From Xanthocytophaga agilis (GTDB lineage Bacteria; Bacteroidota; Bacteroidia; Cytophagales; 172606-1): a stretch of 64,000 nucleotides of DNA. The position numbers and the translations under genes were made by a program. This document shows, in pieces, positions 27,468 to 45,964 of the stretch. Location of the stretch: contig NZ_JASJOU010000007.1 of NCBI RefSeq assembly GCF_030068605.1, positions 1 to 64,000 of the forward strand, in the 5' to 3' direction. The stretch's first letter is position 1; each line of letters opens with the position of its first letter. A model generated the notes under the pieces. The model ran no database searches and was not told where the DNA came from. It saw only the letters and a list, made by a program, of their open reading frames with translations.

Positions 27468-27574
27468 GTCCTTCTGAAAGAAACTCGTGACAAATAGAGC
27501 TGCGTTCGGTTTCTGAAAAACACATTCTAATGGGAAAGGCCGCCGGTCTTGCCACGAGTTCCTTACAGGAGGAC
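27468..27574 (+). repeat. Dispersed hairpin element, family B, copy 3
   Basis: The core is 107 bp. Its ends are GTCCTTCTGAAAGAAACTCG and the complement of GTCCTCCTGTAAGGAACTCG, so the whole unit can fold into a long hairpin around a loop of about 55 bases. It is almost identical, in reverse, to copy 4 at 29508-29614. Degenerate pieces of the arm word TTCTTTCAGAA recur in the flanks (27377, 27601, 27660). It lies between mqo and the nucleotidyltransferase-like/methyltransferase gene. Confidence 0.82.
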
Positions 27575-27717
27575 AAAAGGGGAGGAATCGACTGAGAGGA
27601 AAGATTCTTTCAGAAAGACAAAAAAGAAGGTGCTTTTCACAGGAGCAAAAAAGGAATGTTCCATTCAGAAGAACAATGAAGAATAAGAATTCCTTTCTTG
27701 AGGATAACAAAGTGTAA

Positions 27718-29325: not shown

Positions 29326-29444
29326 AGCAGACAGAGGGATTGAGTAAATGAATCTGCGGAAATATTACTAGCTATTGGTTAAAAAAACAATCGTTTTGAG
29401 GAAAAGGTGGATAAGTAAGGATGTAAGTTAGTAGAACGTAACTA

Positions 29445-29711
29445 CTAGTTCGAACGTCCGTTCAAAACAGTCAGCTTAAGGCAACCACTCAGAACACACC
29501 CCATTTTGTCCTCCTGAAAGGAACTCGTGGCAAGACCGGCGGCCTTTCCCATTAGAATGTGTTTTTCAGAAACCGAACGCAGCTCTATTTGTCATGAGTT
29601 TCTTTCAGAAGGACAATAAAATAAATAAGAATGAATAGAGAAACTTGCTTAAGTTGACAACATTGAACGGATTCTGCGTTCAAATTAGGTCCGAACGGAC
29701 GTTCGAACCAG
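29445..29711 (-). repeat. Dispersed hairpin element, family B, copy 4 with outer arms
   Basis: The core 29508-29614 (107 bp) is the near-perfect reverse complement of copy 3; I count two differences. Around it lies a second pair of inverted arms: TTCGAACGTCCGTTC (29449-29463) and GAACGGACGTTCGAA (29693-29707), a perfect 15-bp match that extends a few bases outward with one mismatch. Between arm and core, CAGCTTAAG and GCTTAAGTTGAC also pair. The whole unit is about 267 bp, non-coding, and lies upstream of the methyltransferase-like gene and of the fucosidase gene. Confidence 0.8.
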
Positions 29712-29779
29712 TAGGTGCTCACTTTCACTGAAAAAAGAGTATTTTAGCCACTGACATTCCATTATAACCAGTCAAAGTC

Positions 29780-31210
29780 ATGAAAAAATTGCTTCTCTTC
29801 CTTTTTATCCTTCTTTATGCAGTTCCTTTTTCCAGCCAGGCGCAAAAGAAGAGCAAAACTACTCAAGCTACTTCTACCGGAAAGTACCAGGCTAACTGGG
29901 CTTCGATAGACAGTCGGCCTATTCCTACCTGGTTTGAAGATGCCAAGTTTGGGATTTTTATTCACTGGGGATTGTTTTCAGTTCCATCCTGGGGACCCAC
30001 TCCGAAAGATGGAGCCAGCATTTATGACTGTTATTCCGAATGGTACTGGTACCGGCTTACTGATCCCAACTCGAAAGTGAATCCATTGTTTGTAAAGTAC
30101 CACACCAGTACCTATGGCAAAGATTTCCGGTATCAGGATTTTGTTAAAGATTTCAAAGCTGAATTTTTCAAACCTGACGACTGGGCCAGCGTGATTCAGG
30201 ACGCAGGAGCCAAGTATGTGGTGCTTACCTCCAAACACCATGAAGGCTTTACCCTATGGCCTAGTGCGCAGGCATGGAACTGGAATGCAGTGGATGTAGG
30301 CCCTCACCGTGATCTGGCAGGAGATCTGATCAAATCTGTAAAAAGCAAAGGACTGCGAATGGGTTATTATTACTCATTGTATGAATGGTTTAATCCTCTT
30401 TATAAGGCAGATGTGAATCGGTATGTAGATGAACACATGCTGCCTCAGTTAAAAGATCTGGTAACCCGTTATAATCCGGATATTGTATGGACAGATGGGG
30501 AATGGGACCATCCCAGTGAAACCTGGAAAAGCACTGAGTTTCTGGCTTGGCTATACAACGACTCCCCGGTAAAAAACGATGTAGTAGTTAATGACCGATG
30601 GGGCAAAGAAACCCGAAGCAAACATGGGGGCATCTATACAACGGAATATGATCTGGTACATGAGAAGGCGCAAACAGAAGGCTCTCTACCCCGTTACTGG
30701 GAAGAATGCCGGGGTATTGGGAGTTCGTTTGGCTATAACCGTAATGAAAATCTGGAAGACTACTCATCAGCGGAACAACTGGTGCATATACTGATCGATA
30801 AGGTATCTCGTGGTGGCAGTCTGCTGCTGAACATTGGCCCTACTGCCGATGGCCGCATTCCGGTAATTATGCAACAACGACTCAAAGAAATGGGCCAGTG
30901 GCTTAAGGTGAATGGAGAGGCTATCTATGGAACCCGTATGTGGACGGCTGCTCCTGCCAAAAAGATCCCGGATGTATTCTTTACAGCAAAAGGCAAGGAC
31001 GTATATGTAATCTGTACCAAATGGCCTGAAAACGGTATCGAACTGGAAGGAGTTGCGCTGCCTTCCAAGATTACGATGTTGGGATACACAGGTCCGGTCA
31101 AGGCAGCGTTCCAGAATAATAAACTGATGCTTACTCCTCCGGTTGTTTCTCCGGCAACGGTTCCCTGTGACTATGCCTGGACATTTAAATTGGAAAATGC
31201 GGTAAAATAG
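29780..31210 (+). CDS. Alpha-L-fucosidase, GH29 family
   Basis: The product is 476 residues with a signal peptide (MKKLLLFLFILLYAVPFSSQA). The GH29 catalytic barrel covers about residues 40-385: FEDAKFGIFIHWGLFSVPSW, YVVLTSKHHEGFTLWPS and PDIVWTDGEWDHP, where Asp239 is the expected nucleophile, then GGSLLLNIGPTADGRIP. A short beta domain ends the protein. It should release alpha-linked L-fucose from glycans in the periplasm or outside the cell. No SusC/D pair is adjacent, so it is not part of an evident polysaccharide locus. YjbQ follows 116 bp downstream. Confidence 0.95.
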   Translation: MKKLLLFLFILLYAVPFSSQAQKKSKTTQATSTGKYQANWASIDSRPIPTWFEDAKFGIFIHWGLFSVPSWGPTPKDGASIYDCYSEWYWYRLTDPNSKVNPLFVKYHTSTYGKDFRYQDFVKDFKAEFFKPDDWASVIQDAGAKYVVLTSKHHEGFTLWPSAQAWNWNAVDVGPHRDLAGDLIKSVKSKGLRMGYYYSLYEWFNPLYKADVNRYVDEHMLPQLKDLVTRYNPDIVWTDGEWDHPSETWKSTEFLAWLYNDSPVKNDVVVNDRWGKETRSKHGGIYTTEYDLVHEKAQTEGSLPRYWEECRGIGSSFGYNRNENLEDYSSAEQLVHILIDKVSRGGSLLLNIGPTADGRIPVIMQQRLKEMGQWLKVNGEAIYGTRMWTAAPAKKIPDVFFTAKGKDVYVICTKWPENGIELEGVALPSKITMLGYTGPVKAAFQNNKLMLTPPVVSPATVPCDYAWTFKLENAVK

Positions 31211-31326
31211 TCAAAGCTTTGTACAGGAATTATTTTTTATCTTTTAGAGATGGTTTAACGCATTTATAAAACAGTGTAGACCACCTCTTCAAACTTTGTG
31301 AATACATTAATCCAGAAAACAGCGTT

Positions 31327-31746
31327 ATGCATTGGTTCCAGAAAACGATAAAACTCCCTGTATACAAAAGAGGCTTTCATTTGATTACCAATATAGTACT
31401 TCGCGAACTTCCCGAAATACAACAGATTCGTACAGGGTTGTTGCATGTGTTTATCCAGCATACTTCTGCCAGCCTGACCATCAACGAGAATGCAGATTCT
31501 ACTGTACGATCAGACTTTGAAGCGCACTTTAACCGTGCCGTTCCGGAAGATGCACCTTACCAGCATGACTATGAAGGTCCAGACGATATGCCAGCACATA
31601 TCAAGGCATCTATGTTAGGTAGCTCGGTCTCTATCCCTATCACGGATGGGCGGTTAAATCTCGGGACATGGCAGGGGATTTACTTATGCGAGCATCGGGA
31701 TGAAGCAACTCCACGTAAACTGGTAATTACTGTGTATGGAGTGTAA
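31327..31746 (+). CDS. yjbQ: YjbQ / UPF0047 family protein
   Basis: The product is 139 residues, the family length. The conserved blocks are GLLHVFIQHTSASLTINENA, RSDFEAHFNRAVPED, GPDDMPAHIKASMLG and the ending GRLNLGTWQGIYLCEHRD. The conserved His and Glu residues form a small active-site cluster. Family members are reported to have weak thiamine-phosphate-synthase activity, but the true role is uncertain. A second, broken copy of this gene lies at 45020-45175. A terminator hairpin follows at 31785. Confidence 0.93.
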   Translation: MHWFQKTIKLPVYKRGFHLITNIVLRELPEIQQIRTGLLHVFIQHTSASLTINENADSTVRSDFEAHFNRAVPEDAPYQHDYEGPDDMPAHIKASMLGSSVSIPITDGRLNLGTWQGIYLCEHRDEATPRKLVITVYGV

Positions 31747-31784
31747 CTGCATTTAAAGAGTGTTCAAAAGATCCTTTAAAGTAT

Positions 31785-31814
31785 AAAGTCCTTATCTAAC
31801 AAGATAAGGACTTT
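31785..31814 (+). terminator. Terminator hairpin after yjbQ
   Basis: AAAGTCCTTATCT and AGATAAGGACTTT form a perfect 13-bp stem with a 4-base loop, 38 bp after the yjbQ stop. Confidence 0.8.
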
Positions 31815-31986
31815 ATAAATACGCAACTTCTATAGTTCATTAGTTTTCGTATTTCTAGAACATTTCTACAAACCTCAAAATACTGCTCTGCAAAACATGC
31901 CCTTGCATTGGAAACAGGGGCTTAGCACTTTGTAGCATATACAGAATCCACCAAAATATGAAAATTTGTGGTAGGTAATAGGTATA

Positions 31987-32490
31987 TTACCAAACTATAT
32001 ACGCTACTTTTGGATTCTTACTCTGATACAAGACCTTATAATCTTTGCTCTCTATGAACTTTACTTCAGAAGGTAAACTTTGATAACGTTCATACTCTTT
32101 ACCTTCCACTTGATAAGTGAAGCGAATTGCTTCGTTTATAGAAACTTCTTCAACCATTGTGGTCCAAGTAACAGCAAAATCCTTTTTGTCTAAAATAGCT
32201 GGTTTATCGAACAGCATGATAGATTCATCTGCATTTGATGAATCGTACAGAACCTCATATTGCTCACCTGTCTCCAAACTAACTGCAGGCTTGGAAGTAA
32301 CACGAGTATAAGGCTTTCCATTAACGAAGTAGGTATATTTTATGTTACTACCTTTTATGGAAACCTTTGCTGTCGTTCGCTTACCATACTTGATTAGCCA
32401 ATCGTGTGCGTTACCTTGCTCTCGAATGGAATAGATAAATAAAGAGATTAAAAAAAAGCTTATTAAATAAATCGTGGTGTTTCTTCTCAT
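31987..32490 (-). CDS. Small membrane-anchored protein with two DUF3592-like repeats
   Basis: The product is 167 residues. A single N-terminal hydrophobic helix (TTIYLISFFLISLFIYSI) anchors it. The rest contains two related units, about residues 36-98 and 112-167: IKYTYFVNGKPYTR...YEVLYDSSN and IRFTYQVEGKEYER...YKVLYQSKN. The pattern Y-x-Y-x-V-x-G-K-x-Y, then V-L-Y-x-S, is like DUF3592. It is the last gene of the LamG-LRR-RHS-RHS run, 13 bp after the large RHS gene. That position is where an immunity protein would sit, but nothing in the protein proves such a role. Confidence 0.7.
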   Translation of the reverse strand: MRRNTTIYLISFFLISLFIYSIREQGNAHDWLIKYGKRTTAKVSIKGSNIKYTYFVNGKPYTRVTSKPAVSLETGEQYEVLYDSSNADESIMLFDKPAILDKKDFAVTWTTMVEEVSINEAIRFTYQVEGKEYERYQSLPSEVKFIESKDYKVLYQSKNPKVAYIVW

Positions 32491-32503
32491 ATTTCGCTTT
32501 TTA

Positions 32504-35500
32504 TTATTTTATAGCGTCTTTCGCTTGTTCTCCAGTGTACGATGAGGTTGCACCAGCCGCCATATTTACCGCAGTTTCTCTGGCTTTCATTTCACTTTCA
32601 GCAGCGACTTTTTTTGCCTGTTGTTTTACATAGCTTTTACCACCAATAGGTACTTTTCTCATAGCTTTAGCAGCGGCGGTTATTTCCTTGTTCAAGATAT
32701 GATTTACAGCTTTACCTGCTTGTTTGCCAGCAAATCCACCACCTGGACCACCTACAACATCCACGACAGCGTTTTTTAAATCTTTCTTTTTACCAACAAC
32801 TCCACCTACAGTTTCCACCTGTATCCCTTTTTTATCTTTATCATACTTGACATCTACACTTGCTTTTATTATCTCAGGAGCCAAAGCTTTGCCCAATTGC
32901 ACGGCCTTGGCAATTCGAGTTGACGCAGCGGCTACTTGGACTCCGCCATTTAATCCTGATGTTAAGGCACCTACCGCACCGGCCACCGCTATATCTGCCA
33001 AATCTACATCAGTAATAGCTTCTTTCAAACCCTTACCAAGAGCAAAATTAACTATCACTTGTGTGCCATACTCGATAGCCACTGCCTGCAAGGCACCTGT
33101 GATTGGATTTCCTGTTTTCCCATCTGGATCATTATGTCTTATAGGGTCACAGTATACATAATGATAAGGCGACCATGACTCTTGATCTTCTTCTTCAGAG
33201 GCAGGATCAATCACATGCCATCTACCTAATTGCGCATCATACATTCTGGCTCCATAATCCATCCAGTTCAATCCAAACTCTTCCTGCTTTTCCTTCCCAT
33301 TGTACTGAAACTTATGATTAGGATTCCCCTGCACTTCAATCCCTGCCAGATTCAATCCCCATGGATCATAATGATTCTCCTGTACAATAATAGGTGGCTC
33401 CTGTGTCAGGGTCAAATCATCAAAATAAGCAGATACCCTGGATGAAGAGTTAACCACACTTACTTCTACGATCTGCTCTTCCTTAGGCTGATAGACCAGT
33501 TCCAACTTCTCCCAACTACCAATGGCTGACTTACTTAATTTCTGTGTCTGTAAAGATAAAACTTTTCCTGAACTGTCTCTGGCAATTATCTGTAGATACG
33601 CTTCTGGCAGTTCAGTCTGTTTTTTTCCAAACTTCAAGGGCAGTGCCAGTCCTGCTTTTAAGGCCAGCTTTTTGTGTACTTTGCCATCGGCTACCGTTGG
33701 CTCTTGCCCAATAATGGGAACAGGTATCCAGTTGATGCGTCTGGTTTGTTTTTCTTCCACATACCCATACACACTGGCCCAGAGTGTTTCTCCTGCCTGT
33801 AGCTTTACGGTTTTGCCAGGTCCGGTTTTGGCTAGCAGTCTGGCTGCATAGCGTCCACTGTGAGCGGGTCCTGCCACACGACTCAGACTCACTTTCTGGA
33901 AAGCCGCTTCTTCCTCAACAGCCATAGTAGGTTCCATTGTCAAACGAGCCGAGGAGGTCTGGCTTCGTTGCTGACGGTATGCTACCCGCAAATTACCCAG
34001 ATGATCTTTGTAATGGTACTCGTAGGCAAGTTGTCCACTTTGTGGATCTGTAATCACCCGTCCTTCTTCATGGGCAATAAAGCTCAACGCATTCGATGTT
34101 CCTTTCACTGGATCGGTTTCAAATACATTCTCTCCATCATAATCGGTCAGAGCAGATTGCTGGGTAGTCACATTCAAGGCTTTCTTTCGCCACTTGCGAC
34201 CTGTCGCGTCATAGGTATAACTAATCTGAAAAGGAATGGTTGTAGTTCCTACTTTCTGACTACCAATTACTGTTTCTACTAGTCCCAGATAGTTATAGGT
34301 AATTGAAGTAATGCCTTTGTTAAGATCTTTGATCAAACTTCCTTCCGCATCATAATCATAATCAACGCCTGTACTTAGATTACGAAAATCACCTACGCCA
34401 TCCGGAATAGCACTTGTCACGGCATCACTGACCGACTGTAGTCTGTTTCCATTATTCAGATAGGTGTAACTCAGTTTGTCAATCACATTGCCACTTACAT
34501 TTGTTCCACTAGTAGATCCAAAAGTAGGAAAGATCAGTTTGCCCCCTGTCATGCCATTTCGGGTCAGCGCCTCAATATTGCCGTTTTTGTCATACTTCAT
34601 ACCTGACAGTGAATAATTCTCTCCACTGTATTTGCCACCTGAATAAGCTGCTGCCACAAGTCGATTAGCCGCATCATAGCTGTAATCATACACCCGGTTG
34701 GGACGATTACGTACACTGTGACTGATCCAGCTTTGTTTGCTGATATTGCCATTGTAGCTTTCTCCATCCTCCTGGTAATTGAGCCTCATGCCAAACAAAT
34801 CATTTTCATTGGCATTGAGTGCTCCCTGATTGACACTTGTCAGCCAATTGCGGATATTATAGGTATAATCTATCTTCTGCAAAGCCGTGGTTGTACCTGT
34901 GGTAGGAGCCATGGGCTCTGCACTATAGATTGTTCCTGACCCAGCAATGACAAACCCTTTTTTAAAGGTAATCTTTCCAGCCCTGTCTTCGACAATTCCT
35001 TCCAGCAGTGCATCACGCACAAGCTGAGACGTAGACTGGGTGGCTTCAATGGTATTATAGGTTCCTGGCTGGATATTTTTGCGCACCAGTCTGCCCAACT
35101 CATCATACTCATAGGTTGCCAAGGTCAATGCTTGAGGAGTAGTGCTACCTTGTCCAATGGCATGATTGGTCTGAACCTTGTGCCCCATCTCATCATAGCT
35201 ATATTCAGTCACTACGGTATAGGAAGGCTTGCCATCATTGTACTGACTTATTACTTTTTTACTCATCACCTCTCCCACAAAGTTGAGCGTTAAGTCTGTT
35301 CGGGTCTGTCCGCCAAAGGGATTTTGAGAATAGGTCTGCACCGGACGGTTTTTCTCGTCATAGTACGTAACACTGGTTAACATCTGATTTCCAAACTCAG
35401 TTTGTTCCAGCAACCGAGCCATTGAACCGGTAGCCAGGCCGCGGGCAGATTGTTGTATCAAACTGTTGAAGGAGGTAAAAGCCATTGAAGCAGGGACTGT

Positions 35501-36691
35501 CCAACTGTAGTCATCATAGTAGTTAACTAAATTCACCTGTGTATCTGTTACAGAAGGATAGGCATTATTGGTATAGCCAAACACAGAACCTGTACGAGAT
35601 TCAAATGGGGTACTGCTCGCAGCCGCAGATCGCAGATCGGTAAGTGCACTGGTAAGTGTCATTTCGCCCGAAAGTACAACACGACTGAAGACATCGTATT
35701 TGGTAAAAGTCCATTTATTGGTTGCTGCCTGGCGGGCAGTCTGAGTCAGAACAGGTAGATCCACTTTGTTGTAAATGATCTGTGTCCAGCCACCACCCGG
35801 TACCAGCTTTTCAATTACTCTCCCTCTATCATCATAATGATACGCAAATAAAAGTTCACTGTCAACGGCTTCGCTCAAACTCACGGCGGCTGTTGTTATC
35901 TCCACTTTGGTAGCATAGAGTTTAGGCGGAATGACAAATACCAGTTGATCCAGATCATTGTACACATAGGAAGTGACCATCCAGGTAGGAGCTGAAGCAG
36001 TACCTCCATCCTGTACATTTTTCTGAACAACCTTCCCTTCCTTGTCTTTATACTCAATGACCAGATGCTGATTTTCATCCATAATCTGGGTTTTGAATAA
36101 TTCTCCACCAGCATAAAAGCCTGCAGAAGCCAGTGAAGCCGTGTTGATACCGCTGGCAGCGGAAGCCGTCCACAAACGCACATTGTCACTGGAAGCAGAG
36201 ACCAGATACTGTGTCTTTACTGGTCTGTCGGCTGTCCGCCAGGCATCCCCTGCCCCATACTGGCTAAGTACCCGATTGAGAGGAGACGCCTCATAGACAG
36301 GTTGTACAAAAGCATTAGTTTCTCCATAAAAGCTAACGGCCTGTGCAGGTTGATCGCTAACCAGTTCTCCGGTAGCAGTTGTAACCGGAGTAGGCAAGTA
36401 GGTACGATCCGTCCGGCCAAAGGCATCATAAGTTATCGAAGTAACCACATCTCTTTTAGATACTGACTGCCCTGGTCTGGGCAATGCCCCCTGGTATTGC
36501 ACCGATTGGATAGGTCGTCCTAGTCCATCCACATAGTCAATAGTAGTGACCGCTTGTGTACCATTGGCTCCTCGAAAGGTGCTTGACTGCACATAGTTCT
36601 GAGAAGAACTTGGCGTCTGTGCCCATAATGGTAGGTTGCCAGCTAGCGTAGTCAGAAAGAACAATGCCAGGCATTGAAAATGATTTCGCAT
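32504..36691 (-). CDS. RHS-repeat protein with DUF6443 N-terminus
   Basis: The product is 1395 residues with a signal peptide ([20 protein letters not shown]). A DUF6443 domain follows ([20 protein letters not shown]), then many YD/RHS repeats such as [26 protein letters not shown] and [12 protein letters not shown]. The RHS-associated core is [20 protein letters not shown] followed by DPASEEE, ending near HNDPDGK. The last 203 residues are a separate Gly/Ala/Val/Lys-rich tail ([19 protein letters not shown]) with no nuclease or other toxin motif that I recognise. RHS proteins make a hollow shell that can hold a C-terminal toxin or act in contact and adhesion. Gaps: 117 bp to the gene before it, 13 bp to the one after. 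Confidence 0.9.
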   Translation of the reverse strand: [1395 protein letters not shown]

Positions 36692-36738
36692 ATAGTGTTA
36701 GATAGAAGATTCGTATGTATGGATATGTCCGATCTAGC

Positions 36739-36773
36739 CCTCGATCTGAAAAAATCTATTTTCCAGATCGAGG
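36739..36773. other. Stem-loop between the two RHS-type genes
   Basis: CCTCGATCTG and CAGATCGAGG form a perfect 10-bp stem around an AT-rich 15-base loop. There is no U tract on the minus strand, so it may be a weak terminator or an mRNA-processing or stability hairpin that sets the ratio of the two proteins. Confidence 0.5.
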
Positions 36774-36808
36774 AGATTATCGGATTATAGTACTAGTTTA
36801 GTTACAAC

Positions 36809-39800
36809 TCACTCTTTGTAATGATACTGATAGGATTTGAGCAGGTTTCCTGGCTGATTATTCACTCGATCTCTCACTGTCTGCAAACGTTGAAAAGCAT
36901 CATACTCATAATAGGTTGTTACCCCATTGGGATCAGTCACCGACGTCACACCTACCAGCGGATTATAGGTATAGATGGAAATGAGTGCATTTGTCATACT
37001 GGAATGAGTACGAAGGGTGGTTAAGGTAGCACGAATCGCTGCTTCATCACTAAGTGCATTGAGCTGGGCTTCACTAACTCCCTGAGCCGCTAAAGCAGTG
37101 AGTACTTCGCTGTAGGTAGCATTCTTGATTTCAGCAATAGGATAGGTTTTATTATATCCCCACAGATATACACTATTAATATCTCCATCTTTGGCCTGTT
37201 CAAGCAAATTGCCACTGGCATCATAGCCATTGAAATGGACTTTCGCTTCGAGTGGTCCTGTTCCTAACTGTTGTTCAATCAGGGAAGGCTGTATCAGCTT
37301 GCTATCTGAAAACCAATCGGTATAGGTAATACGGGTACGGCTAACCGGGTTACCATTGATTGTTTTGCTAGCCTCTATCACAGAAGCTGTCATATTACGA
37401 TTGACCATTTTCTGATAAATGGATTCTGTCGCAGCTTTCTCATGTGGATACTGGAATGTTTCTACAATGGTTTGCTGTTTACTATTAGTAGAGGTTTTCT
37501 GTGTTAAATTCAGATGGGAAGGACTTTGATAGTCAAAATTTTCTACAATAGTATTTTCATTACCCTGATCGTCAATTGTTTTTTTCTCACTTGAGGTCAA
37601 AAACATATAACCACTCTCTATTGGGTAAGTAAAGAAAACAAAATCCGCTGATACAGCACCAGGCGTTTGCGTTAAACAACCACTGTGGCTGTATCTCATC
37701 TGAAATTTAGTGTTTGAAAACGAAGTTTGACGATTGAGCACATAGTTGTTCTTTACCTTAGTAATAGGTTTAAAAACATCATTTTCGACTTTGCCACTTT
37801 GCTCCTCCAGCAAAAGTCCTGACCTCCATGCATTGGATACGAAAAACTGACCTAATGCATTAAATTCAGCAGGAATAGCAAGTGACTGATCCGGTTCTAC
37901 CGAAAACTGAGAAACCTGTTTTCCATTTTTACCACCATTTTCCGAAACCTGATATTTAGTGACATAGTCATATACTACAGGACTACCACTCATCTGTGAA
38001 ATAGGAATTAGATTAGAAGACTGATAAGTTCGAGCAGGCGAGCTCGTAGAGTAATAATCACATAAGCTACTACATAATGCTCCATCTTGAGACCATTCAC
38101 TTCCCGTTCTAAATTTAACATTAGCATAATTGATATAAATAGCGTAGCTGGTAGTAAGTAATTTACCAATACCATCTTCTTTCTGTCCGTACTTATACAA
38201 ATCTTTATTAATAAAGTTACCATTATGATCATAATTGGTAATAGATGCAATCCGCAATCCACCTTCAGAGCGTATATCTTTCTGTTTTGTGTCTGAAACA
38301 TACTGAATAGTAGCATTTACAGTAACAGCTTGAACTTGTGGAGTTGTAGGCCTGCTAGGATCTGTTGATACAGAGGCATGAATCTTATACGTATGTCCAG
38401 GTACCAATGGCCACAAAATAGGCCATTGACCAGAGCTAACTGTCTCCGAGGCGTTTGCATGGCCAATAGATTCAACTTCACCAGTTGTTACATCTTCAAT
38501 TTTTATATAAGGACGCTCTACGATGCCAGTGACATTATAGGGTGAAAGATAATACTGAATGGTTGCATCTTTAGCATAGGGTTCATCTTCAGCAACAGTA
38601 AACTCTGTCATACTATAATTAACATTGCCTGGATGCCATCCTGAAGCACCTGCACTAAATGTCTTTTTTTCAACCTTTGGCTCTTCCATCTCAAACTGGT
38701 GGGGCTCAAATTCAAAGACAGTTTTTCCTCCTGTAGGATATTTAATTTCTTTAATCATACAAGCCTTCATCATAGTAGGATTGGACGATCTATTCGCGTT
38801 GCCAAACTTATAATACCTACCGCCTAGAACCGTCTCAGTAACAGGCATTAAGGTAACATTGTCAGTAGCACCATTATTAAATCCCCATCGGTCTTGACCA
38901 TTATTATTCACTGGAGCCATTTGTGTGGTTTCATAGGTAAGTGTGTAAGCCTGTGGAGGAGTTGTCTGATCCGAACCATAAATTGTCACCTGATCAAGAC
39001 GCAATCGATCATAATTGCGGAAAAAGTTAATAGGATCATCACTAGGTTTGGGATAAGAAAAATAAGTATGACTTAAAACTACCTTCTTAATCAGAGTATA
39101 TCCTGTTGCTGTTTTTTGGAATACCTGTATCTCTTTTAATCTTGCAGCTAAGGAGAAATCAATTCTGTCACATTCATAGAGAAAATCTACTTTTCCAGTT
39201 TTGAATACTATCGAACTTACATTCAAAGCTTGAAAGCTGTATCTTTCCATTGAGGAAGTAATAGTATTAGGTTCACCATACATAAGCACTTCCTCCTTTG
39301 GATGGCAAGGTCCGGTTACCCGAGCTTTAGCCCCAATGGCTGTAGAATAATTGGTTGTATAATAGAATGACTGACCACAATCAGGTGTATATGAGAATGA
39401 GATTTCATCAACACCTGTTGCAGATGTAATTTTGGAAGCGTGCCAGGTACTTACATATGGAAGAATCTGCCTATTATATCCAGCAGCATAAGAATCTTGA
39501 GAAACTCTTTCTGTTTGGTCAAAAGTATAGCTTACACCTTGATTAGTTGTGATAAGAAAACCACCTTCTGTTCTTTTGGTAATCTTATTATCACTCAAAG
39601 GAATTTGAAAAATACTTTTATCTTTCTGAAACACAAATTTGCCACTACTACCTACTAAATTATAAGAAAACTGATCTGGCTCTATATCTCTATTTCCTCT
39701 GTAAACATCATAATACATTGTATAGTATTGATTAATAGTAGCTCCGTTATCTGTTAGATCAGGATTATTTAGAAAACCCCAACTATCCTCATCTGGCAAT

Positions 39801-40129
39801 CCTACCATGTTACGGGAAACCTGAGGATCAGCAGAAAGAGACCATCCTAATCCTACGTTGGAGGCTACTTCATTGACCCTAAAGCCTGCACTATGGTAAT
39901 TCAAGGAGATAGGCAGATTTATTCCACCCACGTTAATTTCAAAAATAGGAATACTTATATTGGGTACTCCAGTATGTAAGCTCACAGGGATATTACCAAA
40001 CTTTCCTAAACTACCTGCATTAGGAGGTTGTGGGGCTATGGTTCTTATTCCTGTAGTATATTCTGGTGTCTGCGCCTGCAGTGTTCCAATACATGCACTC
40101 AATAATATAAAGTAGATTAAATACCGCAT
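36809..40129 (-). CDS. Giant secreted RHS/YD-type companion protein
   Basis: The product is 1106 residues with a signal peptide (YLIYFILLSACIGTLQA). The N-terminal part carries a pattern seen ahead of RHS genes in Bacteroidota: GKFGNIPVSLHTGVPNISIP, then LPISLNYHSAGFRVNEVASN and VGLGWSLSADPQVSRNM. The middle is unassigned beta-rich sequence. The end has YD-type repeats (VTDPNGVTTYYEYDAFQRLQ). It ends in HYKE without a DPxG core or a variable tail, unlike the next gene. The two probably act together at the cell surface, this one supplying the N-terminal half of an RHS-like shell (inference). Confidence 0.82.
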   Translation of the reverse strand: MRYLIYFILLSACIGTLQAQTPEYTTGIRTIAPQPPNAGSLGKFGNIPVSLHTGVPNISIPIFEINVGGINLPISLNYHSAGFRVNEVASNVGLGWSLSADPQVSRNMVGLPDEDSWGFLNNPDLTDNGATINQYYTMYYDVYRGNRDIEPDQFSYNLVGSSGKFVFQKDKSIFQIPLSDNKITKRTEGGFLITTNQGVSYTFDQTERVSQDSYAAGYNRQILPYVSTWHASKITSATGVDEISFSYTPDCGQSFYYTTNYSTAIGAKARVTGPCHPKEEVLMYGEPNTITSSMERYSFQALNVSSIVFKTGKVDFLYECDRIDFSLAARLKEIQVFQKTATGYTLIKKVVLSHTYFSYPKPSDDPINFFRNYDRLRLDQVTIYGSDQTTPPQAYTLTYETTQMAPVNNNGQDRWGFNNGATDNVTLMPVTETVLGGRYYKFGNANRSSNPTMMKACMIKEIKYPTGGKTVFEFEPHQFEMEEPKVEKKTFSAGASGWHPGNVNYSMTEFTVAEDEPYAKDATIQYYLSPYNVTGIVERPYIKIEDVTTGEVESIGHANASETVSSGQWPILWPLVPGHTYKIHASVSTDPSRPTTPQVQAVTVNATIQYVSDTKQKDIRSEGGLRIASITNYDHNGNFINKDLYKYGQKEDGIGKLLTTSYAIYINYANVKFRTGSEWSQDGALCSSLCDYYSTSSPARTYQSSNLIPISQMSGSPVVYDYVTKYQVSENGGKNGKQVSQFSVEPDQSLAIPAEFNALGQFFVSNAWRSGLLLEEQSGKVENDVFKPITKVKNNYVLNRQTSFSNTKFQMRYSHSGCLTQTPGAVSADFVFFTYPIESGYMFLTSSEKKTIDDQGNENTIVENFDYQSPSHLNLTQKTSTNSKQQTIVETFQYPHEKAATESIYQKMVNRNMTASVIEASKTINGNPVSRTRITYTDWFSDSKLIQPSLIEQQLGTGPLEAKVHFNGYDASGNLLEQAKDGDINSVYLWGYNKTYPIAEIKNATYSEVLTALAAQGVSEAQLNALSDEAAIRATLTTLRTHSSMTNALISIYTYNPLVGVTSVTDPNGVTTYYEYDAFQRLQTVRDRVNNQPGNLLKSYQYHYKE

Positions 40130-40194
40130 ATGAGTAAAGTTCGTTAGCTTTTCGGTTTGATAGGTATATTTTGGATAATAGTATACTAAATAGC

Positions 40195-41877
40195 TTATTT
40201 ATTTCCCCACCCTCTGGTGACCCATTCAGGAACTAATGTTTTGGACATATTCAGGCGAAGTTTGCTCAGCTCTGTCTGAGATAAAAGAGAAGTATCCAAT
40301 CGAAAACTTTCCAACTGCTTTAACTCTCCCAAGCCATCGGGCAGCTTCTCTAACGGATTACCTTCCAGCCCAATGCTTTTCAGATTGGTCAGTTTGCCTA
40401 CACTTTCAGGTAAGGATGTTAACTGATTTTTATCCAGATGTAATCCCTGTAACTGGCTTAATCCTCCCAGGCTTTCCGGCAAAGAAGCCAGTCCATTCTG
40501 ATTCAGATTCAACTGCTTGAGCTTACTCAACTCACCTAAACTTTCGGGTAAAGCACTCAGCTTGTTTTGTGACAATTGTAAACTTTCCAGGTTTTTCAAC
40601 TTGCCTAACTCGGGCAACTGTGTCAGTTTGTTGTCTGTCAGATTCAGCGAAGTAAGCTTATCCATATTACCCAGTTCTTTAGGCAAGGATTCCAGTCTAT
40701 TGCCGGATGCGGAAAAACGGGTCAACTCTTTCAGATTGCCCAGTGAAGAAGGTAGTCCCTTCAAGGCGTTACTGCCTATATCGAGTGATCCCAGTTTATT
40801 TAGATTTCCCAGACTTTCTGGCAGAGCTGAAAGCTGATTGCCATGCAGATTCAACTGCTGAAGACTTTTCAGATTACCTACACTCTCTGGCAGAGACGTT
40901 AGTTTAGTTTGCATGGCTGTCAGCTCTTTTAGATTACCCAGCTTCCCAATCTGTTCGGGAAGTCTTTCCATCGGATTCAGACTCAGTGTCAACTCTTGCA
41001 AGCTGCTCAGATCGCCAATCTCTGAAGGCAGAGTGGATAGTTGGTTATTGGTCAGATTCAGCGATTGCAAACTTTTTAATTCAGAAATGGAAGAAGGCAC
41101 CGATTGCAGATAGCCATTGCTCAGATTCAATTCTTTCAGATTGGCAAACGAACCAATCGAAGATGGTACCTCTTTCAATCCACTCAGTTCCAGACGCATC
41201 ACCTGCGAAGGATTTTTCAGCGCTTCTTCAATCGATGTATACACAGGCAGTTTAGCCAGTTCTTCTTTGCGAAGAGGTATATTGCCTAAGGCATTACCTC
41301 TGAGTTCCAATTCTGAAACATGAGAAAACTTTTCCAGGGGTGCTCCCAGAGTTTTGAGCTGGTTATTAGCCAATTTCAACACCTGCAGTTTAGGCAAAGC
41401 CATCAGTGAATCAGGCAGGCGGGTGAGTTGATTGGACTCGACATTGAGCACTTGCAAAGATTTAAGTTTGCCCACAGAAGAAGGCAGACTTTTAAGTTGA
41501 TTGCCTGACAAATGAAGCTCTTCGAGTTGATTGAGATTGCCAATCGAAGCAGGCAGTTGAGTCAGTTTGCTGTTTTTAATCTGAAGTACTTTCAGATTAG
41601 TAAGTTTGCCAACGGAAGAGGGCAGTGAATCGATCTGAGACAATACGAGCACTTTCACCTTTTGGGGATGACGCAATGCCTGTTTCAGATCGGTATAGAC
41701 TCCTTCCTGAACAGACAAACTATCTGTAAGTGTTTTTTCAGCCTGTGGTTGATCCGCAACCTGACTTTTAGTGATCGTTTGTTTTGGTGACTGCTTTGAC
41801 TGGGCAGAGAGAGTCTGTGGATTTACACAGAACAGACTTGCTCCAAGCAATCCCAGAGGCAGAATGCGTCGAAACAT
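40195..41877 (-). CDS. Secreted leucine-rich-repeat protein
   Basis: From ATG 41877 the product is 560 residues; the open frame before it starts only with TTG. The signal peptide is FRRILPLGLLGASLFCVNPQ. From about residue 80 to the C-terminus it is built of some 20 LRR units of 23 residues with the plan LxxLPxSLGNLxxLxxLxLxxNxL. One interruption near residue 215 (LPVYTSIEEALKNPSQVMRL) repeats the N-terminal cap sequence (VYTDLKQALRHPQKVKVL), so the protein looks like two LRR arrays joined. It is likely a protein- or glycan-binding surface receptor. It lies 60 bp after the LamG gene and 65 bp before the RHS companion, on the same strand. Confidence 0.9.
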   Translation of the reverse strand: MFRRILPLGLLGASLFCVNPQTLSAQSKQSPKQTITKSQVADQPQAEKTLTDSLSVQEGVYTDLKQALRHPQKVKVLVLSQIDSLPSSVGKLTNLKVLQIKNSKLTQLPASIGNLNQLEELHLSGNQLKSLPSSVGKLKSLQVLNVESNQLTRLPDSLMALPKLQVLKLANNQLKTLGAPLEKFSHVSELELRGNALGNIPLRKEELAKLPVYTSIEEALKNPSQVMRLELSGLKEVPSSIGSFANLKELNLSNGYLQSVPSSISELKSLQSLNLTNNQLSTLPSEIGDLSSLQELTLSLNPMERLPEQIGKLGNLKELTAMQTKLTSLPESVGNLKSLQQLNLHGNQLSALPESLGNLNKLGSLDIGSNALKGLPSSLGNLKELTRFSASGNRLESLPKELGNMDKLTSLNLTDNKLTQLPELGKLKNLESLQLSQNKLSALPESLGELSKLKQLNLNQNGLASLPESLGGLSQLQGLHLDKNQLTSLPESVGKLTNLKSIGLEGNPLEKLPDGLGELKQLESFRLDTSLLSQTELSKLRLNMSKTLVPEWVTRGWGNK

Positions 41878-41937
41878 ATAAATAGTAGATTTAGAGTGCA
41901 ATGAGTAGTAAATAGACTTGTGGCTGTTTGGAATACG

Positions 41938-43902
41938 TTATTGTTGTACCACATCATCTGATACGGTAGCCATGTTGATCTGAGAGCCAGCCGGAGCCTG
42001 ATTGGTGATCTTCACCTGCTTCCTGAAGATATTACCGCCATTACTTACATCTGTACCACTACCTGTTTTAGTGATCGTCACATCGGAGTTGAAAGTAGAA
42101 CCATTCAGTTTAATATGTGGAGTTTTGGCTGTAACAGGTCCTATGAAAGAGGTTAGTTTATCGAAAATAAGCGTCCCCGTGTTGGTTTCTGTTCCCCCTG
42201 AAGATAGATCTATTGTTGTCATTGCCGTTGTCTGGAATTGACAGTTGGCGAAAGCTAAATTGCCCTTGAGAAATTTCGTAATATTTAATGAAGCAGTTGG
42301 CATAAAAATACACGAAACGGGTGACGCATAATCTCCAAAACGAACTTCCACCGGGCTTATATTTGTATTGGAAGTACTATTATTGGAAATAGTAATAGGG
42401 CCATAAAATCGGTTATACCGAGTTCCTCCTCCGCTTTTATTATTGTTATCATATCCTAGATAAATGGAACTTCCATACGTGGTTGCGCCTATATTATTAA
42501 TATTTAAAATCACTGCCTGTTCAAAGGTTGCAGATCCTTTTTGACCATTAGAGATTATGATTGGACCTACAGAATTATGATTTACCACTACATTTCCCTT
42601 AAAAAGCAGGTTATCTCCCCCTATCACAAAAAAATCCCATGCATTCTGATTGAAGGTAGCTGTTCCTGTAACAGTAACAAGTGGAATCGGGTTGGCATTG
42701 CCATAGCCAAAATAAATCCGATAGGCATTATTCGTAACTGTCAGATTCCCATTAAAGAAATCACTTTCCGAGCTGGCAGTCTGGAGTATACCATTGCCTC
42801 CCGGGCTATTGAGAATGGTAGTATTTCCATTAAAGGTATTTCCTCCTGCCCAATTTCCGGTTCCTGATCCGTTTCGCTCCAGTGTAATATCACCGGTTAC
42901 AGTAGTCCGATAAAGTTGATTGAAAAGCAAAGATGTCAGCCTTCCTCCATTACTGGTAATAGAAGTACTTCTGATTTGCAGATCCCGTAAGGTAGTTAGT
43001 GTATAGGTACCAATATCGAACTTAGCCCCTGTATTCAGTGTCAGATTTTTTACAGTTGTAGTGGTAGCCAGTTTAGGACAGGTGGTACAGGAATTGACTA
43101 CTGCATCATCATAGGTAGAAGGGATACCTGCAGGAGTCCAGTTGGCAGCTGTATTCCAGTCTGTACTGACAGATCCATTCCAGGTGTAAGCTGCAGGAGT
43201 ACTCGGATAAGCATATAAATTAAAAATGTCTGCTTCACTCAAGGCTCTTTCGTATAATCGTACCTCATCTATTTTACCCCGTATGGCATTGGCCGCTGTA
43301 GTGCTTCCTATAAAAAAGCCAGTCCAGGCTACAGGAGCCGTCATCGTTTTACTTACAACTAGATTACTGTTTTTGTACAATTTTCCTGTCCCAGCCGAAT
43401 AAGTAAACACAAAGTGCTGCCATTGATTTAAGGCTAAGGTTCCTGCTGCTATGTTTGTAGGTGTCCCCATTCGTGTAGCCACATCGGTTCCTACCCACAA
43501 ACCTCCTGTGGCATCCGAATGAAACAGAAACGCGTTCCATCCATTGATAGCTCCTGCCAGGGTCATATTGGTTCCGTAGGAAGTAGGATTCACCCAAAAA
43601 GAAACAGTAAAACCAGTAGTAGCGGGATTCCAGCTCCAGCCACTGGCAGCGGCAGCCCATCCCTGATTGGATACCCACTCCAGAGAAGAATTTACTTTGC
43701 CTGCACTTGAAGCAGGGGTAGTTCCGGTTATGGTACCCGAATAAGTACCTGTCTGATCTATAAGTGGGCTATTTACTGGATTGTCATCCATATTCCAGTA
43801 AACTTTTAAACCTGTAGTAATATTCTGGGCATTTAGGTTCACAACAATTCCCAGGTTAATAACAAGGCAAATACAAAAACGATAAAAGTACACGTAGTTC
43901 AT
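41938..43902 (-). CDS. Secreted LamG-domain protein with beta-helix-like C-terminal region
   Basis: From ATG 43902 the product is 654 residues with a signal peptide (YRFCICLVINLGIVVNLNA). A concanavalin-like LamG domain covers about residues 25-240 (LKVYWNMDDNPVNSPLIDQT, FTVSFWVNPTSYGTN, LNQWQHFVFTYSAGTGKLYK and GKIDEVRLYERALSEADIFN). A short YTWNGSVSTDWNTAANWTP block follows, then some 360 residues of Asn/Thr/Gly-rich repeats like a beta-helix (FNGNLTVTNNAYRIYFG). The end (NMATVSDDVVQQ) is abrupt and lacks a T9SS sorting domain, so it may be truncated compared with relatives. It is the first gene of the five-gene minus-strand cassette. Confidence 0.82.
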   Translation of the reverse strand: MNYVYFYRFCICLVINLGIVVNLNAQNITTGLKVYWNMDDNPVNSPLIDQTGTYSGTITGTTPASSAGKVNSSLEWVSNQGWAAAASGWSWNPATTGFTVSFWVNPTSYGTNMTLAGAINGWNAFLFHSDATGGLWVGTDVATRMGTPTNIAAGTLALNQWQHFVFTYSAGTGKLYKNSNLVVSKTMTAPVAWTGFFIGSTTAANAIRGKIDEVRLYERALSEADIFNLYAYPSTPAAYTWNGSVSTDWNTAANWTPAGIPSTYDDAVVNSCTTCPKLATTTTVKNLTLNTGAKFDIGTYTLTTLRDLQIRSTSITSNGGRLTSLLFNQLYRTTVTGDITLERNGSGTGNWAGGNTFNGNTTILNSPGGNGILQTASSESDFFNGNLTVTNNAYRIYFGYGNANPIPLVTVTGTATFNQNAWDFFVIGGDNLLFKGNVVVNHNSVGPIIISNGQKGSATFEQAVILNINNIGATTYGSSIYLGYDNNNKSGGGTRYNRFYGPITISNNSTSNTNISPVEVRFGDYASPVSCIFMPTASLNITKFLKGNLAFANCQFQTTAMTTIDLSSGGTETNTGTLIFDKLTSFIGPVTAKTPHIKLNGSTFNSDVTITKTGSGTDVSNGGNIFRKQVKITNQAPAGSQINMATVSDDVVQQ

Positions 43903-44084
43903 TTTATTATATAACTGATTTAAAATTAAACACATATATTACTAAAAATGATAAAAAAAATAATCATCATTACTGTGCACTCCGCTATCCAGTAAGATAC
44001 CTCCTATCCAATTATATCTTTAATAACCAAATACGCCCTATCATAAACATTCATCATGAAAAATATTTATAAATATAAATCATA

Positions 44085-44113
44085 CAAAAATACATTTAAA
44101 TAATACAATACAA
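44085..44113 (-). promoter_or_regulatory. Probable promoter of the LamG-LRR-RHS cassette
   Basis: On the minus strand, TTG (44113-44111), an 18 bp spacer and TATTTTTG (44092-44085) fit the Bacteroidota promoter plan. The leader to the LamG start would be about 175 bases. The region is AT-rich, so a chance match is possible. Confidence 0.4.
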
Positions 44114-45019
44114 GAAATACTAATAAATGGAATATAAGAATTGAATAGAACAGGCGATGAAAACAACAGAGAAAAGAGCTAGTCAGATTACCAACACAGG
44201 AATAACCATATACTGGACATTGACAGAACAAGTGATAGGTAAGAACACCAGTTAATCAGGATAACTCAATCTCTTATTCAACGTCAAACCCATTCCTGCA
44301 GAATAGGCTAAGAAGAAATCTTACATAGGTGGAGCTTATTGATTTTTTACAGGGATAAATGAGATATACCAGGATTTATCAGTCATTTCTTTCATAGGAA
44401 AGAAATAAAATTCAGTAGTGATAAAACCGTTTTTATGGATGTATTTGAGTTATTGGTTATAGGAGAGACAAATTTACAGCAGCTATTCTACACTAAAAAC
44501 AGATTTTCTCTACAATGTAATATTTGAGATAAACTTATCTGGTGCTTAAAAAGAGAGGACTATTAATTCTAAAATGAAAGAATAGTAAACATTTTTTCTT
44601 TTACAGCTGACATTTTTTTCGACAAGAAACCATCACAGTAAAAGGGTAGCTTTGTCACAAAACAACAAAAATCTCATTGCTAGATAGTTAGCCAAACAAA
44701 ATATGGAACACAAACCAATGGTCTGATTACACTCAACAGAAAATATATTTTTCAACACTGTAATAAATCTGCTCAAAAAATATTGGAGTAAGTAGATCTT
44801 CTACTTTCAAAGGTGTTAACCTGGATAGTTATCTTACATAGAGTATGCTGTATAAGTAACTACAATTGGTTACCTCTCAAGGATAATTCTATTGGGATAG
44901 TATTCTATAGAAATGAATGAATAAGTTTTGTAAAAGGAATGGGGGTACAAGAAGGCTGTATTTGTACATATAAGTGGATATTCAGCACAAAATTCATAAT
45001 AGTAGTGAATCATGTCCCT
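44114..45019. other. Gene-free AT-rich stretch
   Basis: About 900 bp with no ORF of quality, no shared repeat and no clear hairpin. Together with the decayed yjbQ and the family B element that follow, it forms a desert from 43.9 to 46.0 kb and may be the edge of a past insertion or deletion. Confidence 0.5.
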
Positions 45020-45175
45020 ACAAGTATGCTGCATGTATTTATCCAGCATACCTCTGCCAGCCTTATATCAACAAAAACGCAGATTTTACTGTACGATCCG
45101 ACTTTGAATCGCACTTTAACCGAGCTATCCCTGAAGATGCACTCTACCAACATGAAGGCCCTAATAATATACCTT
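45020..45175 (+). pseudogene. yjbQ: Decayed yjbQ fragment
   Basis: About 150 bp match the middle of the intact yjbQ at 31.4 kb: the coding blocks HVFIQHTSAS and then, one frame over, NADFTVRSDFESHFNRAIPE and DALYQHEGPNNIPY. A frameshift between the two blocks, the missing start and the missing C-terminal third show it is broken. It probably arose by duplication or by transfer of a related gene. A family B element follows 170 bp later. Confidence 0.8.
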
Positions 45176-45346
45176 ATCTTGTCCCATAGCTTTTGTGAAA
45201 ATGAGGTTTTTAGGGAAAAGGTACTTGTTCGAAAAGAAAGACGCTGGTTCGAACCCAGAATGACAGCAACGTTTGTTACGTTGGGACAAATTGAGCCAAG
45301 TTCAGCTATGTGATAGTACTCAAACAGGGTCTTACCTACCAACGCA

Positions 45347-45569
45347 GCGTCCGCTCCATGCTGTCAAGGTAAGGGAGTGTATTTCTTTTTTTCATATTTC
45401 TTTATTGTCCTTCTGAAAGAATCTTGTGACAAATAGAGTTGCGTTTGGATTATGAGAGAAAAAATCATCTCTAGTCGGAAAGGCCGCTAACCTTGCCACG
45501 AGATCCTTACAAGAGGACAGGAGAGGTAGTTTGAGTGGTTTTCTTAAGGTGACAGCATTGAGTGGACGC
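45347..45569 (+). repeat. Dispersed hairpin element, family B, copy 5 with outer arms
   Basis: The core 45407-45518 (112 bp) has ends GTCCTTCTGAAAGAATCTTG and the complement of GTCCTCTTGTAAGGATCTCG. Outer arms pair GCGTCCGCTCCATGCTGTCA (from 45347) with its near-complement TGACAGCATTGAGTGGACGC (ending 45569). This copy shows best that the element is a nested inverted repeat of about 223 bp. It is non-coding. Confidence 0.8.
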
Positions 45570-45964
45570 TTGCGCCAGAAACTTTCTTTGTTTCCAGAAA
45601 AGATATGGGACACGATAAGAATAATATACCAACCCATATCCAAAGCTACAGAGAACTGCTAACTGAATTACCAACCCAATTACGCCATCTATGGTAAATA
45701 GATGATATTTCTCTGTTTCATCACTAAACAAAATCTAATCAGTGGAAGTACATTAGACTGATCCAGGAGTTGCGGCATAGTTGTATATTCGCAATGTGTA
45801 CCAGTTTTTTGCACTGACTGGCACCACTTATATCAATAGAAAATATACCTGTCAGTCAAAGATCTATACAAATATTGCTGGTGATTGTACTCTGACTATG
45901 GATTTATCAATACCTTTTCATCCATTGGTTAGCCGCTTCTTTATTTGTATTAATTACATAGGTT

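What the first reader, a model, noticed from the sequence alone, without database searches (positions are those of the whole stretch)
31987..43902. Five-gene secreted cassette: LamG, LRR, RHS-companion, RHS, small membrane protein
Seen: five minus-strand genes with gaps of 60, 65, 117 and 13 bp, one promoter candidate (44085-44113) and no strong terminator inside. Four products have signal peptides. LamG and LRR proteins are binding modules, while the two RHS-type proteins look like two halves of one shell system. Inference: the cassette may be a contact or recognition system, with LamG/LRR as receptors and RHS as the effector or adhesion shell. I know of RHS genes paired in Bacteroidota but not of this exact set as a described system.
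Basis: partly seen in the sequence, partly recalled or inferred. Interest (0 to 1): 0.72.

Follow-up and report, generated by a model that had tools for sequence, protein, structure and literature searches.

The report
Two-part Rhs toxin cassette with immunity
A run of five bacterial genes most likely builds a secreted toxin weapon: a two-piece protein shell that carries a toxin tip, two partner proteins that probably recognise surfaces, and a small membrane protein that probably protects the producer from its own toxin.

Summary
The five minus-strand genes are real, with gaps of 60, 65, 117 and 13 bp. The core is an Rhs polymorphic-toxin locus. P0002 (DUF6443, YD repeats, Rhs core) ends in a rare 203-aa C-terminal domain (CT). 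P0001 (membrane-anchored, DUF3592) is most likely its immunity protein: in two distant genomes a related CT is followed at once by a P0001 homologue. P0003 is the other half of the shell: its family lies upstream of 31 of 37 sampled Rhs genes and is fused to 3. Its AlphaFold model matches Tc-toxin B subunits (first in Foldseek), T6SS Rhs shells (first by VIA Z) and the SpvB N-domain. LRR and LamG are accessory recognition modules: in relatives LRR (8 of 30) or LamG (4 of 30) is fused to the Rhs N-terminus; in the window that extension is missing and both are separate genes. Toxin activity, membrane targeting, delivery route and co-transcription are inferred. New variant of a known kind.

The parts
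41938..43902 (-). P0005: signal peptide, LamG (ConA-like) domain, then a repetitive beta domain beginning YTWNGSVSTDWNTAANW ('F' domain, my label)
   Evidence: Pfam Laminin_G_3 E=1.2e-21; F homologues beside Rhs loci in L065/L121, L076, L081, L078, L109, L115, L117, L118; low-confidence model, pLDDT 59
40195..41877 (-). P0004: secreted leucine-rich repeat protein
   Evidence: Pfam LRR_14 E=1.1e-56; best non-self match (50%) also lies next to an Rhs gene; LRR tree: sister of that LRR, 99/98
36809..40129 (-). P0003: RHS companion, SpvB/TcB-like shell half
   Evidence: YD repeat near the C-terminus; AlphaFold pLDDT 73, pTM 0.75; Foldseek best hit YenB E 4.6e-21, TM by query 0.40; VIA Z 15.8 over 622 residues with TcdB2-TccC3, Z 13.9 with the SpvB N-terminal domain
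33116..36691 (-). P0002 constant part: signal peptide, DUF6443 (residues 35-163), YD repeats, Rhs core (1108-1191)
   Evidence: Pfam PF20041 E=5.1e-35; NCBIfam TIGR03696 E=2.2e-16
32504..33115 (-). P0002 variable C-terminal domain (residues 1193-1395), predicted toxin; moderately hydrophobic glycine/alanine-rich stretch
   Evidence: matches in 2 of 291 order genomes and 3 of 395 class genomes, own included; relatives L134, L136 by BLASTP, L139 through these two
31987..32490 (-). P0001: N-terminal transmembrane segment plus DUF3592; predicted immunity protein
   Evidence: Pfam DUF3592 E=9.9e-7; homologues directly downstream of related CTs in L134 and L139; GC 35.3% against 45.5% for the Rhs body
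44085..44113 (-). candidate promoter, TTG-N18-TAnnTTTG
   Evidence: pattern match, 3 in window against 1.58 expected; weak
45019..45155 (+). decayed partial copy of the UPF0047 gene 31327-31746, same orientation, on the far side of the cassette
   Evidence: 115 of 138 alignment columns identical

Best explanation
It is an Rhs polymorphic toxin-immunity locus of a Cytophagales bacterium (same genus as Xanthocytophaga flavus by inference). P0003 and P0002 are exported through Sec and together form a hollow two-piece Rhs shell of the TcB/TcC type. The shell carries the last ~200 residues of P0002, the exchangeable toxin. P0001, encoded 13 bp downstream, is an inner-membrane-anchored protein that neutralises that toxin in the producer; this and the toxin's glycine/alanine-rich stretch suggest that the toxin acts at or in the inner membrane. 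LamG-F (P0005) and LRR (P0004) are secreted recognition or anchoring modules that in relatives are fused to the Rhs N-terminus; here they are separate chains. Supported by computation: gene content, rare variable CT, CT-immunity pairing, shell-half relation, module fusions. Inferred: toxicity, membrane target, surface display, target binding, delivery route (unknown), co-transcription.
For: (1) Rhs core with a rare CT: a match in 2 of 291 order and 3 of 395 class genomes, own included. (2) CT-immunity linkage met from both sides: L134 was fetched by its CT and proved to carry a P0001 homologue 5 bp downstream (two-sequence BLASTP E 5e-7); L139 was fetched by the small-protein profile and proved to follow an Rhs CT related to those of L134 (E 4e-6) and L136 (E 5e-6). 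Background: among 67 CT/next-gene sets (2211 pairs) 14 CT pairs and 4 next-gene pairs reach E<1e-5. (3) Own genome holds 27 P0002 matches; 15 are core-region matches in ORFs under 550 aa, six of them in a row downstream of a full Rhs gene on C15. (4) Of 37 Rhs genes of named genomes the companion is upstream in 31, fused in 3; 35 have a same-strand ORF under 450 aa starting within 400 bp downstream. (5) P0003 model matches TcB and Rhs shells. (6) N-terminal extensions of 30 DUF6443 Rhs proteins: LRR in 8, LamG in 4, Ig_7 in 10; LamG seen individually in L081 and L117.
Against: No toxin domain was recognised in the CT. In the 67-set test none of the pairs window/L134/L139 reaches E<1e-5 on both sides: window-L134 CT 1e-7, next gene 3.5e-4; L134-L139 CT 4e-6, next gene 2.7e-4; window-L139 CT 0.11, next gene 1.6e-7. 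L139's small protein is below the DUF3592 cut-off and L134's has no Pfam match. Most other P0001-like proteins found have no Rhs CT directly upstream in the stretch held. CT relatives L136 and L137 are followed by membrane proteins without shown homology to P0001. No secretion-system gene was identified. P0003 has no SpvB/TcdB Pfam hit. G003:C18 shows LamG-F, X, LRR and a frame-broken Rhs but no companion; its contig ends just after the Rhs gene.
Confidence: 0.7

Rival explanations
1. The cassette is a surface adhesion or recognition apparatus without a toxin: the Rhs pair is an adhesive shell (as in teneurins) and LamG/LRR are receptors; P0001 is an assembly or anchoring factor.
For: Teneurin and SGS1 structures also match P0003; no toxin domain is recognised in the CT; LamG/LRR/Ig domains are adhesion types.
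Against: The CT is rare while the core is widespread, its relatives in L134 and L139 come with a P0001 homologue, and the genome keeps orphan core-CT strings, hallmarks of toxin exchange.
Confidence: 0.15
2. P0005/P0004 are unrelated secreted proteins that only happen to sit beside the Rhs pair.
For: Exact five-gene order found in no other locus examined; only 9 of 37 named Rhs genes have an LRR fused or near; LRR matches are abundant in the genome (25 at E<=1e-20).
Against: LRR and LamG are fused to the Rhs N-terminus in other genomes; an LRR gene lies in all 3 own-genome loci with DUF6443 Rhs genes; 5 of the 6 best non-self matches of P0004 lie in Rhs loci (two of them near-copies in sister species), against 0 of 15 lower-ranked LRR regions examined; R. 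zeae L078 has Rhs, companion, LRR, X and F together.
Confidence: 0.15
3. A true Tc (ABC) toxin locus aimed at eukaryotes whose A component is encoded elsewhere.
For: P0003 model's top Foldseek hits are YenB and TcdB2.
Against: None of the five flanking genes scanned is TcA-like; the TcA probe found nothing in the genome, but its control rang nowhere, so it is uninformative; no Pfam SpvB/TcdB hit in P0003; a downstream putative immunity gene points to bacterial targets (inference).
Confidence: 0.06

Closest known systems
Sec-exported Rhs polymorphic toxins (Zhang et al. 2012, PMC3482391; passages and section 42 seen)
   Same: Constant N-terminal part, Rhs repeats, exchangeable C-terminal toxin, downstream immunity gene, toxin cassettes; Laminin-G at toxin N-termini is already described there.
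   Different: Here the shell is split into two genes and LamG and LRR are separate genes; the one LRR passage I was shown concerns immunity proteins.
Tc toxin BC complex (TcB plus TcC; census PMC7861908, passages seen)
   Same: Two-gene shell, first half TcB-like in fold, second half with Rhs core and variable C-terminus.
   Different: No A subunit seen, a putative immunity gene, no SpvB/TcdB Pfam match; that census reports mainly Proteobacteria and Firmicutes, and a search of its main text for 'bacteroid' found 0.
Porphyromonas gingivalis Rhs/YD-repeat locus PGN_1816-1825 (PMC6775972, passages seen)
   Same: Bacteroidota Rhs genes with conserved core, variable C-termini and an upstream secreted-protein gene.
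   Different: Not compared by sequence here; that upstream protein is called a T9SS cargo, whereas no T9SS tail was reported by Pfam in the window proteins.
Membrane-acting effectors: Tse5, a pore-forming Rhs toxin (PMC10684867, PMC9637101, search listing only), and EsxX (PMC12744356, abstract and outline seen)
   Same: Tse5: Rhs protein with a pore-forming toxin. EsxX: glycine-zipper membrane-depolarising C-terminus, with membrane proteins protecting against the extracellular form.
   Different: Works-like comparison only; no homology of the CT to either was tested directly or shown.
TANFOR polymorphic toxins of Bacteroidetes (PMC7073777, passages seen)
   Same: Polymorphic C-terminal toxins with downstream immunity in Bacteroidetes.
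   Different: No TANFOR hit among the NCBIfam results; whether that library holds a TANFOR model was not checked.

Membership tests
Rhs polymorphic toxin | YD/RHS repeats and Rhs-associated core before the C-terminal domain | tested here: met
   TIGR03696 E=2.2e-16 at 1108-1191; RHS_repeat E=2.5e-6
Rhs polymorphic toxin | C-terminal domain hypervariable between otherwise related proteins | tested here: met
   14 of 2211 CT pairs reach E<1e-5; this CT in 2 of 291 order genomes
Rhs polymorphic toxin | cognate immunity gene directly downstream | tested here: met
   Gene pairing only: P0001 13 bp downstream; homologues behind related CTs in L134 and L139. Immunity function not testable here
Rhs polymorphic toxin | orphan core-CT cassettes in the genome | tested here: met
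   15 of 27 P0002 matches are core-region matches in ORFs under 550 aa, some with stops inside
Rhs polymorphic toxin | toxic activity of the C-terminal domain | not testable with these tools
   needs an expression assay
Tc toxin B subunit (TcB) | SpvB-type N-terminal shell plus Rhs strands | tested here: inconclusive
   Fold level positive: VIA Z 13.9 with SpvB N-domain, 15.1 YenB, 15.8 TcdB2-TccC3, but RhsP scores 18.6 and no Pfam SpvB match was found
Tc toxin B subunit (TcB) | TcA-docking beta-propeller (recalled) | tested here: inconclusive
   no propeller or TcdB family in Pfam; residues about 432-615 match jelly-roll domains (Z 8.1-8.8); the alignment there was not inspected
Tc toxin | A component | tested here: inconclusive
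   no PF18276 hit in the genome, but the control search rang nowhere
T6SS Rhs effector | N-terminal PAAR domain | tested here: not met
   no PAAR match in P0002/P0003 at E<=0.1 in Pfam or NCBIfam
T6SS Rhs effector | T6SS genes in the neighbourhood | tested here: inconclusive
   only five flanking genes scanned, none T6SS-like; genome not searched for T6SS
T9SS cargo | C-terminal sorting domain | tested here: not met
   no Por_Secre_tail or CHU_C match in the five proteins at E<=0.1; both families were detected in other proteins
DUF3592 immunity | homologue adjacent to a related toxin domain | tested here: met
   two genomes besides the window (L134, L139); most other P0001-like hits had no Rhs CT directly upstream

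The most novel reading that the evidence does not exclude
A TcA-free, TcB/TcC-like two-chain toxin capsule is widespread in Cytophagales, and its targeting parts (LRR, LamG-beta, Ig) are modules that evolution either fuses to the shell or supplies as separate secreted subunits, while the toxin tip and its membrane immunity protein are exchanged independently at the other end; the window carries a new membrane-acting toxin family with DUF3592-type immunity.
Probability: 0.35. Interest if true: 0.7.

Novelty: new variant of a known kind. Interest (0 to 1): 0.5.

Why it matters
How Sec-exported Rhs toxins of Bacteroidota find and enter targets is, as far as I know, open (PMC6775972 says that the role of Rhs genes in Bacteroidetes had not been studied, passage). 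Fused and split versions of the same LRR and LamG modules on one conserved two-part shell are a natural experiment: gene removals can ask whether LRR/LamG matter for target choice. The CT plus P0001 pair is a directly testable toxin-immunity candidate and offers a role for some members of the uncharacterised DUF3592 family.

Tried and rejected
Defence system: PADLOC gave one weak LRR match only. LRR as a type III effector: XopAE/XopL matches lie far below their curated cut-offs, generic LRR similarity. P0005 fold search: six hits at E<=0.001 and the listed 50 are LamG/ConA-like proteins (arabinanase domain, sialidases, neurotoxin binding domains), query TM under 0.2, model pLDDT 59; no functional meaning drawn. 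Promoter and terminator scans did not clearly exceed chance. TcA probe PF18276 was uninformative. Literature searches with 0 papers: DUF6443, DUF3592 with immunity, Tc toxin + TcB + Bacteroidetes + Rhs, Rhs + Bacteroidota + toxin + Cytophaga + immunity protein; open-licence PMC papers only.

Limits of counts. The 37 Rhs genes come from 49 loci found by similarity to P0002, not a random sample; ORFs lacking DUF6443 or core were not counted. In one search the rows L085, L091 and L102 (printed 'down' with negative gaps) are companions overlapping the Rhs start, and L081's companion lies upstream beyond X and F; I counted all four as upstream, so 31 = 25 within 1 kb + 3 overlapping + 3 with genes between (L071, L076, L081). 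The 30 N-terminal extensions are 30 of 35 listed; two repeats and three short ones were left out, and some are near-copies from sister species (L081/L117). The 16 control LRR regions (L148-L163) were taken roughly in rank order, with some ranked hits skipped and some contigs short; L148 ranks in the top six and has no Rhs gene on its 12.7-kb contig. The LRR tree is weakly resolved (8 of 30 inner branches starred, bootstrap not settled). P0001-like hits were judged by eye, those also with the core model, in about 1-1.5 kb of flank. L137's CT relation rests on the two-row profile alone; its CT was translated in a wrong frame and that row was discarded.
Full report
WHAT IS THERE. The five minus-strand genes are present at the stated coordinates; with starts at 41877 and 43902 the gaps are 60, 65, 117 and 13 bp. 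In transcription order: P0005 (signal peptide, LamG, then a repetitive beta domain I call F), P0004 (LRR), P0003 (RHS companion), P0002 (DUF6443, YD repeats, Rhs core, 203-residue CT), P0001 (membrane-anchored DUF3592 protein). The genome is 9.77 Mb in 66 contigs. The same-genus genome G001 has a contig of the same length (322,100) as X. flavus YF14B1 JASJOS010000014, so I infer G001 = X. flavus and the genus Xanthocytophaga for the window.

THE TOXIN END. The P0002 CT has a match in 2 of 291 order genomes (own and G059) and, with a two-row profile, in 3 of 395 class genomes (own, G092, G656). In G059 (L134) the CT closes an Rhs core protein and the next gene, 5 bp on, is a P0001 homologue (two-sequence BLASTP E 5e-7). 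From the other side, a profile of P0001-like proteins hit 10 of 395 class genomes; one of them, G384 (L139), lies directly behind an Rhs CT that is homologous to the CTs of L134 (E 4e-6) and L136 (E 5e-6), and its small protein matches P0001 at E 1.6e-7. The direct window-L139 CT comparison is weak (E 0.11), and in that set-wide search the next genes of window and L134 match only at 3.5e-4. L136's CT is followed 2 bp on by a 127-aa membrane protein without detectable homology to P0001, and L137's CT (related by the profile only) by a 214-aa membrane protein of another kind. So four CT relatives are each followed by a small membrane protein, two of them homologous to P0001. Window, L134, L136 and L139 CTs share a moderately hydrophobic glycine/alanine-rich part. 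Most other P0001-like proteins found have no Rhs CT directly upstream; G141 (L181) has an Rhs core about 0.9 kb downstream. DUF3592 is therefore not an immunity-only family. Inference: a toxin-immunity pair whose immunity protein is anchored in the inner membrane, so the toxin probably acts at or across it.

POLYMORPHISM. Over the loci held at that point, 79 distinct Rhs CTs were cut out, 67 with a following gene; of 2211 pairs 14 CT pairs and 4 next-gene pairs reach E<1e-5, 2 of them both; none of those 2 is among window, L134 and L139. The own genome has 27 P0002 matches; 15 are core-region matches in ORFs under 550 aa, some with internal stops, six of them in a row downstream of a full Rhs gene on C15 with small ORFs between. 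This is as described for polymorphic toxins (PMC3482391, passages and section 42 seen).

THE SHELL. In 49 named-genome loci, 37 ORFs hold both DUF6443 and core. The companion lies within 1 kb upstream or overlapping in 28, upstream with genes between in 3, fused into the same ORF in 3 (L089, L097, L106), only downstream in 2 (L099, L108), and was not found in 1 (L103); 35 of 37 have a same-strand ORF under 450 aa starting within 400 bp downstream (four rows re-read by hand, see Tried and rejected). The AlphaFold model of P0003 (29 rows, pLDDT 73, pTM 0.75) has as best Foldseek matches the B subunits of Tc toxins (YenB E 4.6e-21; TcdB2-containing chains), ahead of T6SS Rhs shells and teneurins; separate TcC chains score E 2e-6 to 3e-5. 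Query TM-scores are only about 0.4. VIA-align gives Z 18.6 with RhsP over 311 residues, 15.8 over 622 with TcdB2-TccC3, 15.1 over 656 with YenB and 13.9 with the SpvB N-terminal domain; by Z the T6SS shells rank first, by aligned length the Tc proteins. A sequence profile found only Rhs proteins at weak scores (Tre23 E 5.8e-5, Tse5 0.001). It works like an Rhs shell half of the TcB kind; membership in TcB is not claimed. P0002 itself was not modelled.

THE RECOGNITION MODULES. In relatives the DUF6443 Rhs protein often has a long N-terminal extension, mostly 350-700 residues. Of 30 such extensions scanned, 8 hold LRR, 4 LamG, 10 Ig_7; LamG was seen individually in L081 (X. flavus) and L117 (own genome). 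In the window DUF6443 starts at residue 35, so the extension is missing, while LRR and LamG are separate genes upstream. The own genome has three loci (four genes) with a DUF6443 Rhs gene (window, C8, C15), and each has an LRR gene: between LamG and companion here, one small ORF downstream of the Rhs gene on C8, and divergent beside a companion on C15. Ranking P0004's matches in 59 genomes, five of the top six non-self matches lie in Rhs loci (G003:C18, G000:C15, G001:C5, G000:C8, G003:C7; G000:C15 and G001:C5 are near-copies); the other (G051:C212) and 15 lower-ranked LRR regions had no Rhs gene in the stretch held. Runella zeae (L078) has Rhs, companion, LRR, gene X and F together in another order. 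Gene X (about 365-434 aa, DUF4097/DUF7330-like only below cut-off), next to F in the relatives, is absent from the window cassette. Outside the family the linkage is loose: of 37 named Rhs genes LRR is fused in 7 and near in 2, F near in 3. The exact five-gene order was not seen again in any locus examined.

THE SITE. Against X. flavus, synteny holds over at least 27610-31746 (95%) and from 45654 to at least 51999 (92%), both limited by the stretches compared, and is lost in 31747-45653, where both X. flavus contigs approach their ends. The contig beside UPF0047 carries a frame-broken Rhs-core fragment with a different tail, so this looks like a shared Rhs hot spot with different content (inference). 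A decayed UPF0047 copy lies at 45019-45155, across the cassette from the intact gene.

VERDICT. Observation confirmed; interpretation partly supported. Supported by computation: gene content, rare variable CT, CT-immunity linkage in two other genomes, companion as shell half, LRR/LamG as Rhs modules. Inferred: toxicity, membrane target, secretion path beyond Sec, receptor function, one transcript. Filed as an Rhs polymorphic toxin locus, a new variant with split shell and split recognition modules. On checking I lowered the main confidence from 0.72 to 0.70, because no window/L134/L139 pair passes the strict threshold on both sides.

Noticed in passing
window 45019-45155 and 31431-31568: A decayed partial duplicate of the UPF0047 gene lies on the far side of the cassette in the same orientation (83% over 138 columns), suggesting past duplication or recombination at this site.
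   Followed up: partly
window about 45172-45622; also pieces at 27448-27575 and 29455-29680: A repeated intergenic element: most listed matches of the query in the same-genus genome G001 (71 in all) fall in this stretch, and it matches the left flank in both orientations.
   Followed up: no
L116 (G000:C15:25000-44500): Six orphan Rhs core-CT fragments in a row with small ORFs between them, downstream of a full-length Rhs gene: a possible reservoir of toxin tips; some have stops inside.
   Followed up: partly
L170 positions 1-1865 (G001:C8 contig start): At the same chromosomal site X. flavus carries a frame-broken Rhs core fragment with a different tail; the other flank (L171) holds small ORFs near its contig end.
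   Followed up: partly
L076, L081, L115, L117, L118, L078, L109, L065: A secreted gene X (about 365-434 aa, DUF4097/DUF7330-like only below cut-off) sits next to the F-domain gene beside Rhs loci; absent from the window cassette; function unknown.
   Followed up: no
L131, L132: A P0001-like 175-aa protein follows, directly or after one small ORF, a long NHL-repeat protein with a T9SS sorting tail in G001 and the own genome: a possible other role of this family.
   Followed up: no
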